Assembly (NCBI GenBank): GCA_028819505.1
Contig: JAPPLH010000147.1
Span: 1-63,452, forward strand
Source: Acidimicrobiaceae bacterium
GTDB lineage: Bacteria > Actinomycetota > Acidimicrobiia > Acidimicrobiales > Aldehydirespiratoraceae
DNA: 63,452 nt
Reading direction: 5' to 3'
Shown here: piece by piece, positions 50,474 through 55,977 of the stretch
Position numbering within the stretch: position 1 is the stretch's first letter
Layout of the letters: every line of letters begins with the position of its first letter
Notes under the pieces: model-generated
Seen by the model: only the letters and a program-made list of their open reading frames with translations
The model's database searches: none
Told to the model about the DNA's origin: nothing
Made by a program: the position numbers and the translations under genes

Positions 50474-50600
50474 CAATCCGAATTGGCAGCAGAATGCACG
50501 CATACCGTGCAAAACGCTGCCAATTCCTGTCCTCGTCCCGGCCGCAATCCGAATTGGCAGCAGAATGCACGCATACCGTGCAAAACGCTGCCAATTCCTG
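50474..50600. repeat. Two identical 56-bp nested-hairpin repeats
   Basis: 50474-50529 and 50545-50600 are identical over 56 bp with a 15-bp spacer. Each folds as a double dyad: outer AATTGGCAGC/GCTGCCAATT, symmetrical internal loop AGAA/AAAC, inner TGCACG/CGTGCA with a 5-base loop. A third, diverged copy is at 15373-15425. They fill the gap between two minus-strand genes of one operon. Confidence 0.85.
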
Positions 50601-50606
50601 CGGGCA

Positions 50607-51548
50607 TCATCGGGGCCCACCACCGAGGGGGCCCTCCCGCAGCTCCAGCCACAGATCGTCGGGCACAGGCGACCGAAGGTCGGCCAGATTCTCGTCCACC
50701 TCGGCCGGCGTGGCCATCCCGACGATGACGGAGGCCACGGACGGGTTGGTGAGCGGGAAGCTCACGGCCGCCGCCCGCAGGGTCACGCCGTGGCGCCGGC
50801 ATACCGAGTCGATGGCGGCCGCCCGGGCGAGCGTCTCGTCCGAGGCGGGGCCGTAGTCGTACCAGGCGCCGGCTCGGGGGCGGGCGAGCACTCCGCTGTT
50901 GAACACCCCCGCGGCCAGGTAGGCGACCCCCCTCTCGGCGCATGCGTCGATCAGGTCGGCGGCGGACCGGTCGAGAAGCGTGTAGCGGCCCGCGACCAGC
51001 ATGCAGTCGAGGTCGGCCCGCTCCAGGAAGGCGGCCGCGGTTCGCACCGAGTTGGTGCCCAGCGAGACCGCACTGATCACCCCCTCGTCCCTCAGCGCCA
51101 CCAGGGCTCGATAGGTGCCCTCCAGCGCTTCGAGGATGTGGTCGTCGGGGTCGTGGACGTGCACGATGCCGACCCGGTCCACCCCCAGGCGCTCGAGACT
51201 CGACTCCAAGGACTGCCGGGCGGCGTCGTAGCCGAAGTCGAAATGGACGTCGACCGACCCGTCGGGCCGATCAGTCAGTATCCGGCCGGCCTTGGTGGCG
51301 ATGACCGGCCGCTCGCCGCCCGCACCGGCCAGCGCCTGCCCCAAGCGGCGTTCGGCCTCCCCCAGCCCGTAGAAGGGAGCGGTGTCGAAGAACCCGATGC
51401 CGAGTTCGAGAGCCCGCGACACGGTGCGCACCGCAGTGTCGGAGTCGTTGCCCCAGAAGATCGAGGCCAGCGGTGCGGTCCCCAGCGCCAAGCGCCGGAT
51501 GCGGAGCCCGGTCCGCGGAAGCGCTGCTTCGTCCAGGGGATCTCGCAT
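50607..51548 (-). CDS. Aldo/keto reductase (aldose dehydrogenase-like)
   Basis: A 313-residue AKR TIM barrel resembling D-threo-aldose/L-fucose dehydrogenases: LGTAPL, FFDTAPFYGLGEAERRLG (Asp and Tyr of the tetrad), ATKAGR (Lys) and IVHVHDPDDH (His), then SVIVGMATPAEVDEN at the C-terminus. It would oxidise a sugar or reduce a carbonyl with NAD(P). ATG 51548 lies 8 bp from the TTTGAT-N3-ATCAAA site, so the site overlaps its leader. First gene of the operon that continues to the MR/MLE gene and the XRE-cupin gene. Confidence 0.87.
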   Translation of the reverse strand: MRDPLDEAALPRTGLRIRRLALGTAPLASIFWGNDSDTAVRTVSRALELGIGFFDTAPFYGLGEAERRLGQALAGAGGERPVIATKAGRILTDRPDGSVDVHFDFGYDAARQSLESSLERLGVDRVGIVHVHDPDDHILEALEGTYRALVALRDEGVISAVSLGTNSVRTAAAFLERADLDCMLVAGRYTLLDRSAADLIDACAERGVAYLAAGVFNSGVLARPRAGAWYDYGPASDETLARAAAIDSVCRRHGVTLRAAAVSFPLTNPSVASVIVGMATPAEVDENLADLRSPVPDDLWLELREGPLGGGPR

Positions 51549-51573
51549 CAGCGTGTTTGATCCTATCAAAGTC
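51537..51573. repeat. 37-bp direct repeat, left copy, with operator site 2
   Basis: Identical to 55049-55085. The palindrome TTTGATCCTATCAAA is at 51556-51570. Read on the minus strand, the repeat includes the ATG and the next codons of the reductase gene, so this copy is the one joined to its original gene on the left. Confidence 0.85.
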
Positions 51574-51623
51574 CTGGGCAGCCAGTGGCCGGCGAAGCCC
51601 GGCCGAGGTGGCGATGAGGGTCG

Positions 51624-53387
51624 CTACGGTCCTACGGCGGGCACCACCAAGGCACTGCGACGGTCGATGTCGAGTTCGGCTGCCCTGAGCTGTTCAGTGA
51701 CGGAGCACAGATCGAGCCGGCTGAGGTCCCAGCCCTGCTCGATTCCGTGGCGCAGCAGCATCACGTACAGGCGACTGGGACTGACGGCCGTGTCGTCAGT
51801 GAGTAGACGGCGGACGAAGTCCGCCACGGCTGCGGCAGACGGCGCCCGAGCCGGTCGGGACGGCCGCCGGGCACGGCGAAGCGTGAGCATCAGGTCGAGC
51901 GTGGCGACGTTCTCGAAGCCCGAGGCGAGCCCCTTCACCGATCGCTGGCCCTTGTCGAGGACGGCGATCATGTCCGGGACCACCTCGAGGCCGGCAGCCG
52001 CCACCGCCCGCTGCAGGAGCTGCCACATGGCGCCTGAACTGTTGCCGAACAGCACCGTGACGTGACCGCCCGGCTTGACCACCCGCCGACATTCCTTGAA
52101 GGCGCTGGCGAGAATGGACTCGTATCGCTCGGCGCTGCGGTGCCGTCCGGTGTCGACCCGATCGATCACGGCTTCCGAGCCTGGATCGGTTCTGGCGTCC
52201 AGCCATGCCTCTTGGAAGAGGTTCATGTCGGAGTAGAAGATGTTCGAGCCGAAGGGCGGGTCGGTGAATACGTAGTCCACGGAATTGTCGGCCAGCGGAA
52301 GGCGGTCGGCGCTGGCGATCCGGTAGTCCACATCCGGGCGGAGGGCACTGTCACGGACAGCCGGGCCCCGCCGATGCTGCCTGATCCAGTCGTCGGAGCG
52401 GATCGCGGCCTGCACCTTGCGGGCGAACAGATCGAACACGTTCCACTCGTAGAACACCGGCGCCACGTAGTAGTTGGCGTTGGCGGCGTTGAGGGGGCGC
52501 TGGCGCGACCACTGGTATCTCTTGCTGGCTCGGGTGAGGACGGAAGTGAAGACGAAGAGCAACTTGGCCTGCAGTTCGGGTTCAGGCACCCCGTCGATGG
52601 CCTCTCGAAGCGCAGCAAGAACAGACAGGTTGCGGGTCGAGAAGAAGGACGCGGTGGAGGTGAGTCCGTGACGACCCAGAGCAGAGGCGACGTACATCTG
52701 CCGTGTCTCGTCGATAGCAGTGTCGGGCCAGCGGAGACCAGTCGAATCGACGTGGCGCAGGGGGCCGCTCCAAGGCTGCTCGATCTGGGTGCGCGAGCAC
52801 GAACAGGAGATGGAGTCGATGACGGGCTCCTCACCGACGCGACGACAGCGCGCACCGACGGCGGCGCCGCAGCGGGAACAGGCCATGTCCTCCCGGCGCC
52901 ACGCGGCTTCCTCCAAGCATCGGTAGTAGTTGATCTGTTCCAGGCAGTCGCCGCACTCGATGACGGCCGACCACACGGCCTTGACAAGTTGGGCGTCACC
53001 CCCGCAAGATCCGCAGATCACGGCGTAGACGTCGCCGGTCCGCTCCCGAGCACGCCTGGCAACCTCCTCACCTCGGCCGCGCAGCCGTCCGGCATCGACG
53101 AGGTTCACGTAGTTGGTGCCGATGTGACGACCCAGCACGGCCACGTCGTAGAGGACCGCCCTGCGCCCCGTCATGAGCGCGGCGACTCCGGTCATGCCCG
53201 ACCCAGCGAACGGGTCCAACACCACATCGCCCGGCCGCGTGAACGCCTCGATGAAGGGCGTGATGGCGGCTACCGGCACCTTCGTGAGATACGCATGGGC
53301 CATGTAGACGGGATCGCTGCGGCGAACCCGCACCATCGAAGGCAGCCCTGCCGACTCGCCGGCCGGCCGCGGATCGAGAATGGTCAT
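51624..53387 (-). CDS. DNA methyltransferase with zinc-ribbon insertion
   Basis: A 587-residue putative N6-adenine or N4-cytosine DNA methyltransferase. The AdoMet motif DPFAGSGMTG is at 58-67, the catalytic motif DPPF at 376-379 (TDPPFGSNIFYSD). The 300 residues between them hold CxxC pairs at about 125/128, 145/148 and 170/173, zinc-ribbon-like, and probably the target recognition region. GxFGNSSG (VLFGNSSGAMWQLL) follows. ATG 53387 has GAGG 7 nt upstream; the longer frame from 53615 is not supported. Divergent from the HEAT protein gene. I do not recognise the exact subfamily. Confidence 0.8.
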   Translation of the reverse strand: MTILDPRPAGESAGLPSMVRVRRSDPVYMAHAYLTKVPVAAITPFIEAFTRPGDVVLDPFAGSGMTGVAALMTGRRAVLYDVAVLGRHIGTNYVNLVDAGRLRGRGEEVARRARERTGDVYAVICGSCGGDAQLVKAVWSAVIECGDCLEQINYYRCLEEAAWRREDMACSRCGAAVGARCRRVGEEPVIDSISCSCSRTQIEQPWSGPLRHVDSTGLRWPDTAIDETRQMYVASALGRHGLTSTASFFSTRNLSVLAALREAIDGVPEPELQAKLLFVFTSVLTRASKRYQWSRQRPLNAANANYYVAPVFYEWNVFDLFARKVQAAIRSDDWIRQHRRGPAVRDSALRPDVDYRIASADRLPLADNSVDYVFTDPPFGSNIFYSDMNLFQEAWLDARTDPGSEAVIDRVDTGRHRSAERYESILASAFKECRRVVKPGGHVTVLFGNSSGAMWQLLQRAVAAAGLEVVPDMIAVLDKGQRSVKGLASGFENVATLDLMLTLRRARRPSRPARAPSAAAVADFVRRLLTDDTAVSPSRLYVMLLRHGIEQGWDLSRLDLCSVTEQLRAAELDIDRRSALVVPAVGP

Positions 53388-53426
53388 GGTCGGTAGCCTC
53401 GCATTCGTGGGCACTCTATGGCAGGT

Positions 53427-53449
53427 CGTCATCGCTGACGGTGATGACG
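53427..53449. promoter_or_regulatory. Inverted repeat in the divergent promoter of the cassette
   Basis: CGTCATC and GATGACG form a perfect 7-bp dyad around 9 bases, in the 142-bp region between the two divergent cassette genes. It lies 40 bp from the methyltransferase start and 80 bp from the other start, where a shared control site is expected. Confidence 0.35.
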
Positions 53450-53529
53450 CCGAAGGCATCGTCACGCGGGTCTGCCTCACTGGGCAGATCACGAGCAACG
53501 ACAGGGATTGATCGGGCGAGAAAAGGCTG

Positions 53530-55035
53530 ATGGGCTTCAAGGAGGACGCAGACTTCGCCCGGTTCGTCTCGATGGGCGCCGTCGGTGCCGCGGCCGTCGC
53601 CCGGCACCTGAGCACCGAGCACAGCCATCGGATGGTCGAGCTCGAGCGCTACGCGATGGCCAACAAGGTGTGGCAGACGAAAGTGAAGCGCTTCCGCCTG
53701 CCCGACTTGGTATGCGTGCGATGCGGTCTGCGAGTCGAAGCCCGCGCCAAGTCCAGGCTCGGCATCATCGTCTCGCACTCCGACTCTCCCGGCCGGCAAT
53801 GGGATGCCGGGATGCGCGACCGCGACCTCTACGCCTTCCTACGAGCCGACCTCAGCACATTCCCGCCTGAGACAGGACTTCCGTCGTTCTTCACCACCGC
53901 GGCGCTGCGTTCAACCGTCCAAGATGCCCGCCGAACGGCGCCCAAGGCCGCTTCAGAGGGCTCGGAGATCACGCTGTCCTGGCCGTGCTGGGTTCCTTCA
54001 CGCCCTGGGAGATTCGAGCGCATCGACAGCGACGGCCGCATCGTCTACCACGACATCCGAGGCCGAGAGCGCAAGTATTGGCAGTGGAGCAGATGGTCAG
54101 GCGACGGCCGCTCATACCTGCAGCCAAGGGAGCCCTTCGAAGGCGGGGAGACGATCGTCGCGGGGATCGTGCCAGAGCCGGAGAACATCGATTGCCCGGG
54201 GGACATATGGAAGCTCGACTCGGCAGTCGCGGCAGGCGAGGATACGGATCGCTACGCCGCAATCAAGGCAGCCGGCGTCGTCCAGAGGTTCGATCTGCAC
54301 GAACAACTCGTTGCCGTCCGATCCGAGCAGACGGTCGACTGGAGGCTCCGGCTGGAAGCTGCGGCCAGCCTCGCTCGGCTCGATGCACAGAACTGGACGG
54401 ATGCCTTGGTCGACTTCGCATTCGCTGTCGACGCTGTCGCCGAGCAGCGGATGGAGGCCGTTCTCGCGCTGTCGGAGCAGCGGACACGTACCGCCGCGGA
54501 GGCACTGGCGGGCATCGCCGCAACCGTCGACCTTCCGCAGGAGTTGAGAGCGGCTGCCGCCTGGGGCCTCGGCCAGGGTCCCACACCCCAGCCGACGATG
54601 TTGCTGCAGATCGTTCTCGACCCCCAAGCGGTCGTATCGCTCCATGCCATTGCCGCCATGGATCATCTAGACGAACACACGGAGGCGACGCTCGTCGAAT
54701 GGCTCACAGGCACCGACGAGCGGCGAGCCGACATCGCGGCGCACCTGCTGTCGCGGCATCGGCGCATCAGCGTTCTGTTGGACGCGTGCGAGCATGGGGG
54801 CGCTTCCCGTGTGCGCGCTCTGAGCGCGCTGGGAGGACTACCGCGCGGCGCCGTGCGACTCGCCGCCGGAGTGCGCCTGACTCCTCAACTCCAAACCGCC
54901 CTGGAACCGATGTGGCACTCGCAGACTAGCTGGCTCAAGACCCACGGTCCAGACGCCCTTGAGGCACTCGATGTGCAGAAGGTCCGGTTCGACCCGACAA
55001 GCCCCGGAGATCCCTGGCAAACCGGCACCGACTAG
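53530..55035 (+). CDS. Possible PD-(D/E)XK-like protein with HEAT-like helical region
   Basis: A 501-residue protein. In the N-terminal domain (about 1-110), LPDLVCVRCGLRVEARAK gives PD (58-59), E70, R72 and K74, close to the PD-x(n)-(D/E)xK nuclease pattern; a helix with E39 precedes it and RQWDAGMRDRDLYAFLRA follows. The middle region has PCWVPSRPGRFERID and WQWSRWSGDGRSYLQP, possible binding strands. Residues about 250-450 are Ala/Leu-rich helices in pairs (LRLEAAASLARLDAQ, LRAAAAWGLGQ) like HEAT repeats. The divergent methyltransferase suggests a restriction-modification-like pair. The nuclease call is tentative. Confidence 0.5.
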   Translation: MGFKEDADFARFVSMGAVGAAAVARHLSTEHSHRMVELERYAMANKVWQTKVKRFRLPDLVCVRCGLRVEARAKSRLGIIVSHSDSPGRQWDAGMRDRDLYAFLRADLSTFPPETGLPSFFTTAALRSTVQDARRTAPKAASEGSEITLSWPCWVPSRPGRFERIDSDGRIVYHDIRGRERKYWQWSRWSGDGRSYLQPREPFEGGETIVAGIVPEPENIDCPGDIWKLDSAVAAGEDTDRYAAIKAAGVVQRFDLHEQLVAVRSEQTVDWRLRLEAAASLARLDAQNWTDALVDFAFAVDAVAEQRMEAVLALSEQRTRTAAEALAGIAATVDLPQELRAAAAWGLGQGPTPQPTMLLQIVLDPQAVVSLHAIAAMDHLDEHTEATLVEWLTGTDERRADIAAHLLSRHRRISVLLDACEHGGASRVRALSALGGLPRGAVRLAAGVRLTPQLQTALEPMWHSQTSWLKTHGPDALEALDVQKVRFDPTSPGDPWQTGTD

Positions 55036-55048
55036 CGGCGTTGGCCAA

Positions 55049-55085
55049 GGGATCTCGCATCAGCGTGTTTGATCCTATCAAAGTC
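55049..55085. repeat. 37-bp direct repeat, right copy, with operator site 3
   Basis: Identical to 51537-51573. The palindrome TTTGATCCTATCAAA is at 55068-55082, 22 bp upstream of the PanB-like start codon. Beyond the repeat the two loci diverge at once. Confidence 0.85.
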
Positions 55086-55104: not shown

Positions 55105-55977
55105 GTGTCACGGATCAAGCCCACTGTGGCCGACCTTCTGGCCGGCAAGGGGCAGCGCCAGCTCACCGACATATTCGTCCTGTCCCTCGAGGAGGTCCGG
55201 GCGGTGGAGGATGCCGGCCTCGACATGCTGTGCCTGCCCGACGAGACCATGAGCCGCGAGGTCCGGGAGGCTGCCCCGACGACGTTCATCATCGCCGCGC
55301 TGGCCTACGGGGTCCACGCCACCACCGACGAGTACCTGCGCATGGGCATGGCCATGCACCGCCTCGGCGCCGACGCGGTGTACTGCGCGGCGGGCCTCGA
55401 CACCGCGGCCCGGCTGGCGGCCGAGGGACTGGCCGTGGTGGGCCACATCGGGTTCATCCCCACCCACAGGACCTGGTACGGCGGGTACCGGGCCACCGGC
55501 AAGACAGCCGAGACCGCCCTCAGGGTGTGGCGCCAGGCCCGGGCCTTGGAGGACGCCGGGGCCTTCGCAGCCGAGATCGAGCTCGTGCCCGAGCCGGTTG
55601 CGGCCGCCATCTCGCAGCGTTCTTCCCTGTTCCTCATCTCGATGGGATCGGGGGCCGGATGCGACGCCCAGTACCTGTTCAGCATGGACATCCTGGGCAC
55701 CAACACCGGGCACTACCCGCGCCACTCCAAGAAGTACCGAGACTTCAGGGCCGAGTACGAGCGCCTCCACTCCGAGCGGGTGGCGGCCTACGGCGAGTAC
55801 CGGGCCGATGTGGAGGGCGGGGCCTACCCGGCGGCCGAGCACAAGCTGCAGATCGACGGCGCCGAGCTGGCCGCGTTCATCGAGGCGCTCGACAGCGGCG
55901 AGAATGACCGCAACGACGCCGGCGCGCGACCGATCGGAGGAGTGCCATGGACCGAGATTGCCAGGCCGCAACACTGA
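55105..55977 (+). CDS. PanB-like (ketopantoate hydroxymethyltransferase family) protein
   Basis: A 290-residue TIM-barrel protein of the PEP mutase/isocitrate lyase/PanB superfamily. VVGHIGFIPTHRTWYGGYRATGKT and ALEDAGAFAAEIELVPEPVAAAIS match PanB. However, the PanB metal-binding GDS loop is LPDE here and the TAYD start is absent, so it is unlikely to make ketopantoate; a C-C bond lyase, or aldolase, step on another oxoacid is more likely. GTG 55105 is the first start after the operator; the frame upstream would start within it. It overlaps no neighbour and heads an operon with two amidohydrolase genes. Confidence 0.75.
   Translation: MSRIKPTVADLLAGKGQRQLTDIFVLSLEEVRAVEDAGLDMLCLPDETMSREVREAAPTTFIIAALAYGVHATTDEYLRMGMAMHRLGADAVYCAAGLDTAARLAAEGLAVVGHIGFIPTHRTWYGGYRATGKTAETALRVWRQARALEDAGAFAAEIELVPEPVAAAISQRSSLFLISMGSGAGCDAQYLFSMDILGTNTGHYPRHSKKYRDFRAEYERLHSERVAAYGEYRADVEGGAYPAAEHKLQIDGAELAAFIEALDSGENDRNDAGARPIGGVPWTEIARPQH

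What the first reader, a model, noticed from the sequence alone, without database searches (positions are those of the whole stretch)
51537..55085. Methyltransferase/nuclease-like cassette inserted in a divergent promoter, flanked by 37-bp direct repeats
Seen: the flanks are identical over 37 bp and each carries the TTTGAT-N3-ATCAAA palindrome. The interior holds only two divergent genes. Excision would leave the aldo/keto reductase and PanB-like genes sharing one operator. Known: target-site duplications of common transposons are 2-14 bp, so 37 bp is long. Inferred: an unrecognised insertion mode that duplicates a regulatory site and keeps both flanking operons regulated while delivering a defence-like module.
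Basis: partly seen in the sequence, partly recalled or inferred. Interest (0 to 1): 0.85.

Follow-up and report, generated by a model that had tools for sequence, protein, structure and literature searches.

The report
Mobile restriction-like gene pair, duplicated target
A two-gene module that looks like a bacterial DNA-marking and DNA-cutting defence pair has jumped into a shared gene switch and copied that switch to both of its sides, a known but poorly understood way for such pairs to spread.

Summary
A perfect 37-bp direct repeat (51537-51573, 55049-55085) encloses 3,475 bp with two divergent genes; each copy carries TTTGATCCTATCAAA. Ten of 15 congeners have the empty site: AKR and PanB-like genes 44-45 bp apart, one copy, no cassette. 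The palindrome occurs once in each of 11 congeners and twice here. So this is an insertion with a 37-bp target duplication.

The insert is a restriction-modification-like pair: an N6/N4 DNA methyltransferase (MT) and a 501-aa protein (HE) with an uncatalogued N-terminal domain (conserved PD-x10-E-x-R-x-K) plus HEAT repeats. In four distant genomes HE homologues sit beside a different methyltransferase. Three more long repeats (109, 160, 50 bp) in unrelated targets surround other members; single-copy sites were found for the first two.

The mode is not unrecognised: restriction-modification systems inserting with long, variable target duplications are in print (PMC3874152, passages). This is a new member of that known kind, with a nuclease-like partner that matched no REase model in the libraries scanned. 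HE activity and the breakage mechanism are unproven.

The parts
50607..51548 (-). Aldo/keto reductase gene (host); ATG at 51546-51548 lies inside the left repeat copy
   Evidence: Pfam PF00248 E 2.4e-43; 79-94% identical orthologues in the congeners that have it
51537..51573 (+). Left copy of the 37-bp direct repeat (target duplication)
   Evidence: single copy in 10 of 15 congeners
51556..51570 (.). Operator-like palindrome TTTGATCCTATCAAA, left copy
   Evidence: TTTGATCNTATCAAA found once in each of 11 of 15 congeners, each time next to the AKR gene or its fragment, none in the other four, twice here
51574..55048 (.). Inserted segment (3,475 bp) between the two repeat copies
   Evidence: absent from the 44-45-bp AKR-PanB gap of 10 of 15 congeners; G+C 66.4% against 69.4% for the window
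51624..53387 (-). MT: 587-aa DNA methyltransferase of N6/N4 type; conserved cysteine pairs (zinc-ribbon-like, by eye) between DPFAGSGMTG and TDPPFG
   Evidence: Pfam N6_N4_Mtase E 1.3e-20; PADLOC MTase_II 1.1e-92; alignment A2; PDB profile hits RsrI, CcrM
53388..53529 (.). Divergent promoter region of MT and HE with an inverted repeat (about 53427-53449, CGTCATC-N9-GATGACG)
   Evidence: sequence printed; read by eye, conservation not tested
53530..55035 (+). HE: 501-aa candidate restriction component; N-terminal uncatalogued domain (about 1-225), C-terminal HEAT repeats
   Evidence: HEAT_2 in 18 of 18 homologues at E <= 1, best 3.6e-12, this protein below Pfam's cut-off; no PADLOC or NCBIfam hit (N-terminal part); AF2 model pLDDT 80.5
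53701..53751 (+). Codons of the conserved PD-x10-E-x-R-x-K motif of HE (P58 D59 ... E70 R72 K74)
   Evidence: D59, E70, R72, K74 invariant in the 18-row A3 and the 9-row A5; P58 invariant in A5, Ala in one row of A3
55049..55085 (+). Right copy of the 37-bp direct repeat
55068..55082 (.). Operator-like palindrome, right copy
55105..55977 (+). PanB-like ketopantoate hydroxymethyltransferase family gene (host), GTG start
   Evidence: Pfam PF02548 E 2.2e-38; start aligned with congeners

Best explanation
The cassette is a mobile restriction-modification-like pair (MT modifies DNA; HE is the probable restriction enzyme) that inserted into the 45-bp divergent AKR/PanB promoter of this genome (by its relatives an Acidimicrobiia) and duplicated 37 bp of its target. 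Shown: the duplication, the empty single-copy site in congeners, the gene pair at other loci, and unrelated long repeats of 109, 160 and 50 bp around other members of the HE family. Inferred: HE is a nuclease; the insert carries no transposase or integrase, and the repeats show no common core and the inserts no terminal inverted repeats, so the insertion most likely went through a widely staggered break (nicks on opposite strands tens to about 160 bp apart) into which the linear cassette was joined and the single strands filled in, perhaps with the host Ku pathway. Because the duplicated piece covers the rest of the broken gene or the whole operator, the host loses nothing: here both flanking genes keep their own copy of the operator and AKR keeps its start codon.
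For: Repeat exact and only here in the genome. Single-copy empty sites in 10 of 15 congeners, one (G004) identical over all 37 bp. Palindrome once in each of 11 of 15 congeners, twice here. Other insertions: L051, 159 of 160 bp at the 3' end of an SDR gene, directly empty in G202, G203, G205 among 60 genomes searched; L053, 101 of 109 bp at the 3' end of an amidase gene, single copy in 7 of the 61 genomes searched (four of the seven checked by alignment); L136, 50 bp of a tRNA-Thr gene with one intact copy. No shared core between the four repeats, no terminal inverted repeats. HE homologues sit beside a different, shorter methyltransferase in 4 of 4 distant loci. HE is broken or missing in 7 of 23 loci, MT in 1 of 21. 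One relative lies next to three CBASS genes. Ku in 15 of 17 genomes, this one included.
Against: Only 4 of 20 loci with both flanks readable, about 4 of 14 distinct sites, show a repeat of at least 30 bp and 90% identity that fits a target duplication; the tRNA-Met insertion in G013 shows none. In L053 the repeat encloses 8.2 kb with an IS110 transposase and a 1018-aa methyltransferase-like gene besides the pair, the left copy lies 4.8 kb from MT, and G263 and G267, which share the insertion, show no left copy in the stretches read. In L136 the left copy lies 1.46 kb from HE and no empty site was found. G018, of another genus, has two palindromes of this type in its AKR-PanB gap without any cassette, so a second operator does not by itself need an insertion. 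The HE N-terminal domain has no Foldseek hit at E <= 0.001 in the PDB or BFVD. Nothing tests the staggered-break step.
Confidence: 0.66

Rival explanations
1. Campbell-type integration: a circle carrying the pair plus a captured piece of chromosome (for instance one excised from the same locus of another strain) recombined by homology, so the repeat is the shared piece.
For: Gives the same anatomy; the right copy is preceded by CCAA as in G004 whereas the left copy is preceded by CCAG, which could mean a donor allele; direct repeats would allow excision.
Against: 37 bp is short for RecA-dependent recombination (general knowledge); it explains re-insertion at the same site, not the first arrival; a one-base difference is weak.
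Confidence: 0.17
2. Remnant of, or passenger on, an element moved by a site-specific recombinase; the repeats are att sites and the enzyme is lost or acts in trans.
For: Empty, single-copy sites look the same for islands; targets at gene 3' ends and tRNA genes are typical of islands (typicality recalled); a tyrosine-recombinase-like ORF lies near the pair in L135 (by eye).
Against: No integrase in this insert; four repeats of 37, 50, 109 and 160 bp share no core above shuffled controls; L136 duplicates the 5' part of its tRNA, not the 3' end.
Confidence: 0.1
3. Classical transposition by a transposase in trans with an unusual target duplication.
For: Compact cassette; the right boundary lies 13, 12 and 6 bp after the HE stop in the window, L051 and L053.
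Against: No terminal inverted repeats, no common left end, variable duplication length.
Confidence: 0.04
4. Assembly artefact: metagenome reads of a cassette joined wrongly through a short repeat.
For: The source is a fragmented assembly (167 contigs); the named relatives are metagenome assemblies.
Against: The cassette lies inside a 63-kb contig with matched flanks; long repeats appear around the family in independent assemblies; the insertion of L053 is shared by G267, and by G263 on the amidase side.
Confidence: 0.03

Closest known systems
Insertion of restriction-modification gene complexes with long target duplication (Nobusato et al. 2000; Furuta et al. 2010; known here only through passages of PMC3031569, PMC3874152 and PMC1643837)
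   Same: Methyltransferase plus putative restriction gene, no transposase in the insert, long and variable direct repeats of the target, single copy in relatives lacking the insert
   Different: The example named in the passages is Helicobacter pylori; here in Acidimicrobiia and other Actinomycetota, with one HE family seen between four unrelated long repeats, and a duplicated divergent operator
Type II restriction-modification systems (PADLOC MTase_II models)
   Same: DNA methyltransferase of N6/N4 type next to a candidate endonuclease; the candidate restriction gene is broken in more loci than the methyltransferase
   Different: HE matches no PADLOC or NCBIfam model, and in Pfam only HEAT repeats and weak sub-cut-off hits; sequence specificity and activity unknown
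Genomic islands with att repeats in gene 3' ends or tRNA genes
   Same: Direct repeats flank the insert and restore the target gene; empty sites in relatives
   Different: No integrase in this insert, no common core, variable repeat length
PD-(D/E)XK nucleases
   Same: Conserved PD-x10-E-x-R-x-K pattern on predicted strands; the family motif is recalled
   Different: No structural or profile match found; the motif ends E-x-R-x-K, not E-x-K

Membership tests
RM insertion with long target duplication | Long direct repeats of target sequence on both sides of the insert | tested here: met
   37 of 37 bp; also 101/109, 159/160 and 50/50 bp at other family loci; not seen at most other family loci
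RM insertion with long target duplication | Single copy at the empty site in related genomes | tested here: met
   10 of 15 congeners for the window; G202, G203, G205 for L051; 7 relatives for L053; not found for L136
RM insertion with long target duplication | Length variable between insertions | tested here: met
   37, 50, 109, 160 bp without common core
RM insertion with long target duplication | Insert is a restriction-modification gene complex | tested here: inconclusive
   Methyltransferase clear; restriction enzyme inferred from pairing, motif and loss pattern
Type II restriction-modification | DNA methyltransferase | tested here: met
   N6_N4_Mtase E 1.3e-20, MTase_II 1.1e-92
Type II restriction-modification | Endonuclease cutting the same site that the MTase protects | not testable with these tools
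   No activity data
PD-(D/E)XK nuclease | Conserved fold | tested here: inconclusive
   N-terminal model pLDDT 76.5 from 18 rows; no Foldseek hit at E <= 0.001
PD-(D/E)XK nuclease | Conserved acidic and lysine active-site residues | tested here: inconclusive
   D59, E70, R72, K74 invariant in 18 and in 9 rows, but the spacing E-x-R-x-K is atypical (recalled)
Integrase-driven genomic island | Integrase gene in the element | tested here: not met
   Insert holds MT and HE; the other ORFs of at least 60 aa in it overlap these two, and were not searched one by one
Integrase-driven genomic island | Common att core | tested here: not met
   12 of 12 pairwise comparisons of the four repeats lie below the 95% level of shuffles
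Classical DNA transposon | Terminal inverted repeats and fixed short target duplication | tested here: not met
   Inverted-repeat scores below the 95% level in 4 of 4 elements; lengths 37 to 160

The most novel reading that the evidence does not exclude
The MT-HE pair is a self-moving element without a transposase: HE itself, freed from methylation control, makes the widely spaced nicks at the target, and survivors are those in which the break was sealed with the cassette and a duplicated gene end, so that a restriction system spreads by its own breaks while leaving host genes and operators intact.
Probability: 0.1. Interest if true: 0.85.

Novelty: new member of a known kind. Interest (0 to 1): 0.5.

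Why it matters
How restriction-modification genes move without a transposase has been described by genome comparison since 2000, and no mechanism was found in the passages read. This family offers a restriction-like protein absent from the libraries scanned, together with unrelated targets, different duplication lengths, empty single-copy sites for three insertions, and decayed copies, so the question can be put to experiment and to surveys. It also shows that a long target duplication can leave a copy of a shared operator on both sides of an insert.

Tried and rejected
Single fixed att site: rejected, no shared core among the four repeats. Transposon with inverted ends: rejected. The 14-bp repeat at L055 (TTCCGCTGAGGCGC): not counted, because part of it is HE's own conserved 3' end (KIRFR stop, also seen at another locus, L058). 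The 67-bp, 91% repeat around L134 lies 1.3 and 2.7 kb from the pair and includes a palindromic stretch: not counted. G013 beside tRNA-Met: no repeat found. G014: the pair is split over two contigs, no repeat found. Empty site for L136: relatives gave only the tRNA or split contigs. HE relatives in viral contigs (pattern scan), phages and plasmids (tblastn, E <= 1e-5): none. HE fold search gave HEAT and armadillo-like solenoids for the whole protein and weak hits, in the PDB mostly to RNA polymerase pieces, for the N-terminal domain (the best 50 rows of each list were shown). PDB profile hits of the N-terminal domain at E 0.009 to 0.9 (NDUFA9) and Pfam hits below cut-off (DUF4314, 3 of 18 rows, best 0.0013; PBCV_basic_adap, 0.006) were judged chance. 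Promoter and terminator scan found nothing. Papers: searches, of which 26, 72, 104 and 105 showed only the top of longer lists; one paper not held under either id; PMC3031569, PMC3874152 and PMC1643837 seen as passages only; all other papers as search listings and abstract starts.
Full report
OBSERVATION. The repeat is exact over 37 bp at 51537-51573 and 55049-55085, and those are the only exact copies in the own assembly. With mismatches it reaches 42 of 44. Alignment of the two flanks scores 78 against at most 30 in 200 shuffles, and 0 of 150 random 3.4-kb intervals of the same window carry a flanking direct repeat of at least 30 bp and 90% identity; in other loci 4 of 144 did, all four hitting the real repeat of L053. 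The left copy includes the first 12 coding bases of the aldo/keto reductase (AKR) gene and its ATG, then the palindrome; the right copy ends 19 bp before the GTG of the PanB-like gene.

EMPTY SITE. Sixteen genomes of the genus were available, this one included. In 10 of the other 15 (L004-L011, L013, L015) AKR and PanB-like genes lie 44 or 45 bp apart with one copy of the repeat and no cassette. G004 matches all 37 bases; G006, G008, G010 and G013 match 36 with one mismatch and a one-base indel; the others match 33 or 34 with gaps of 2 or 3 bases. G003 has AKR and PanB-like genes 365 bp apart without the palindrome; G002 is split between contigs and has the palindrome once; G005, G012 and G015 gave no close AKR orthologue. 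The pattern TTTGATCNTATCAAA occurs once in each of 11 of the 15 congeners, each time next to the AKR gene or its fragment, not in the other four, and twice in this genome. So the palindrome looks like a dedicated operator of this divergent promoter, and the insertion duplicated it. That it binds a regulator is inference. Against a simple reading: G018, of another genus, has two related palindromes in an 87-bp AKR-PanB gap without any cassette.

THE PAIR. MT is a DNA methyltransferase (Pfam N6_N4_Mtase E 1.3e-20; PADLOC MTase_II 1.1e-92; PDB profile hits to RsrI and CcrM) with conserved cysteine pairs between its two catalytic motifs (motif names recalled). HE is an orphan: HEAT repeats in 18 of 18 homologues at E <= 1, the window's own below Pfam's cut-off; nothing in PADLOC or NCBIfam (NCBIfam scanned with the window protein only). 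In its N-terminal domain D59, E70, R72 and K74 are invariant in 18 rows and in nine rows down to 31-32% identity; P58 is Ala in one of the 18. That recalls a PD-(D/E)XK nuclease, but Foldseek gave no hit at E 0.001 or better in the PDB or BFVD, so it is not filed there. The case that HE is the restriction partner rests on three things. First, it keeps company with methyltransferases: with MT in 16 of the 19 loci (the other three are L050 and L068, cut at a contig start, and L067), and in a Phycisphaerae genome (L067) and three distant Actinomycetota (L134-L136) with a shorter methyltransferase of another type. All four of these match Pfam N6_N4_Mtase (E 1.4e-39 to 1.7e-44); those of L067 and L136 are 66% identical to each other over 295 residues, while that of L136 aligns with MT only in short stretches around the catalytic motifs. 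Second, HE is disrupted or absent in 7 of 23 loci where its place can be read (L064, L065, L066, L068, L083, L122, L123) against MT in 1 of 21, two of which run off a contig (the one is L083, an internal stop). These loci are not all independent (L053, L122 and L123 share an insertion) and some breaks may be assembly errors. Third, in G204 the pair lies beside three CBASS genes (TIR-SAVED effector, nucleotidyltransferase, E1-E2), and in L051 beside another methyltransferase-HNH gene.

MOBILITY AND OTHER DUPLICATIONS. HE was found in 9 of 198 genomes searched around this one, itself included; one of the nine, G188, only at E 9.7e-4 in the HEAT part. A pattern-limited scan of the 84,980-species collection gave 19 loci; a search of 396 genomes of the phylum gave 5 with a match, this one included. 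Viral contigs, phages and plasmids gave none. Inside the genus there are at least two other sites: G013, beside tRNA-Met, where G002 is empty and G003 keeps only a broken MT; and G014, on contigs separate from its own AKR locus, which is empty. Of 20 loci with both flanks readable (16, counting L112 with L052 and leaving out L062 for its short left flank; 4, of which L135 has only 327 bp on its left), four show a long repeat that fits a target duplication. The 20 are about 14 distinct sites, because L054-L057 and L064 share flanks (L060 in part), as do L058 and L059, and L051 and L052 share their right neighbour gene. The four are: the window (37 bp); L051 (159 of 160 bp, 3' end of an SDR gene; the M48 peptidase gene and the SDR gene lie directly side by side with one copy in G202, G203 and G205 among 60 genomes searched, while G208 and G204 have one copy but other genes in the interval); L053 (101 of 109 bp, 3' end of an amidase gene; single copy in G269, G264, G266, G268, confirmed by alignment, and in G270, G265, G200 by coordinates, among 61 genomes searched); and L136 (50 bp of tRNA-Thr, one intact copy; left copy 1.46 kb from HE), where no empty site was found. 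L053 encloses 8.2 kb with an IS110 transposase and a 1018-aa methyltransferase-like gene; G267, and G263 on the amidase side (its left flank is on another contig), keep MT and an HE remnant there without these genes in the stretches read and without a left repeat copy. In each of the four cases the duplication leaves an intact copy of the interrupted gene, tRNA or promoter. The four repeats share no core and the inserts have no terminal inverted repeats. Missing repeats at the other sites may mean loss by age or a different way in; this was not resolved.

MECHANISM. A variable duplication of tens to about 160 bp, without a common core or ends, is best explained by a widely staggered break filled in after joining of a linear cassette. 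The host has Ku (15 of 17 genomes searched, this one included), so end joining may be available; nothing here shows that it was used, nor who made the break. Campbell-type integration of a circle with a captured host piece is the main rival.

WHAT IS KNOWN. Mruk and Kobayashi 2013 (PMC3874152, passages) state that some restriction-modification systems insert with long and variable target duplications in the order of 100 bp; PMC3031569 (passages) speaks of long and variable target duplications and PMC1643837 (passages) of insertion with long target duplication in Helicobacter pylori; they cite Nobusato 2000 and, in the first two, Furuta 2010. Furuta 2010 was not held; Nobusato 2000 was not looked up. 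The window is therefore a new member of a known kind, not an unrecognised mode. Within the searches made (listings only), no account of the HE family, of this mode in Acidimicrobiia, or of one restriction-like family among several unrelated long repeats was noticed. That is a statement about these listings only.

VERDICT. Observation confirmed; interpretation partly supported; interest 0.5.

Noticed in passing
window 50474-50600: Two identical 56-bp units, 71 bp apart, each able to form a hairpin (GAATTGGCAGC ... GCTGCCAATTC), beside the AKR gene; the arm was not found in the loci L004-L014 and L016 of relatives, and one arm occurs in L015.
   Followed up: partly
L112:1297-5433: Three CBASS genes (E1-E2, nucleotidyltransferase, TIR-SAVED effector) directly beside the MT-HE pair in G204.
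   Followed up: partly
L051:1160-2767: A 535-aa methyltransferase with a C-terminal HNH domain lies just outside the left 160-bp repeat, suggesting that the M48 peptidase-SDR interval is a defence hot spot.
   Followed up: partly
L053:3427-6483: A 1018-aa protein without Pfam hit but with weak methyltransferase-like PADLOC matches, together with an IS110 transposase, inside the 109-bp repeats.
   Followed up: partly
window 53427-53449: Inverted repeat CGTCATC-N9-GATGACG in the MT-HE divergent promoter, a possible control site of the pair (sequence, by eye).
   Followed up: no
window 51537-51573 and 55049-55085: Each duplicated operator also faces inward, so host promoters could fire antisense into the 3' ends of MT and HE (inferred from orientation; one search shows the AKR start remnant reading back into HE).
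   Followed up: no
L014 (G018), AKR-PanB gap: In another genus of the family the 87-bp gap carries two operator-like palindromes (TTTGACCGTATCAAA and TTTGATTGCATCAAA) without any cassette.
   Followed up: no
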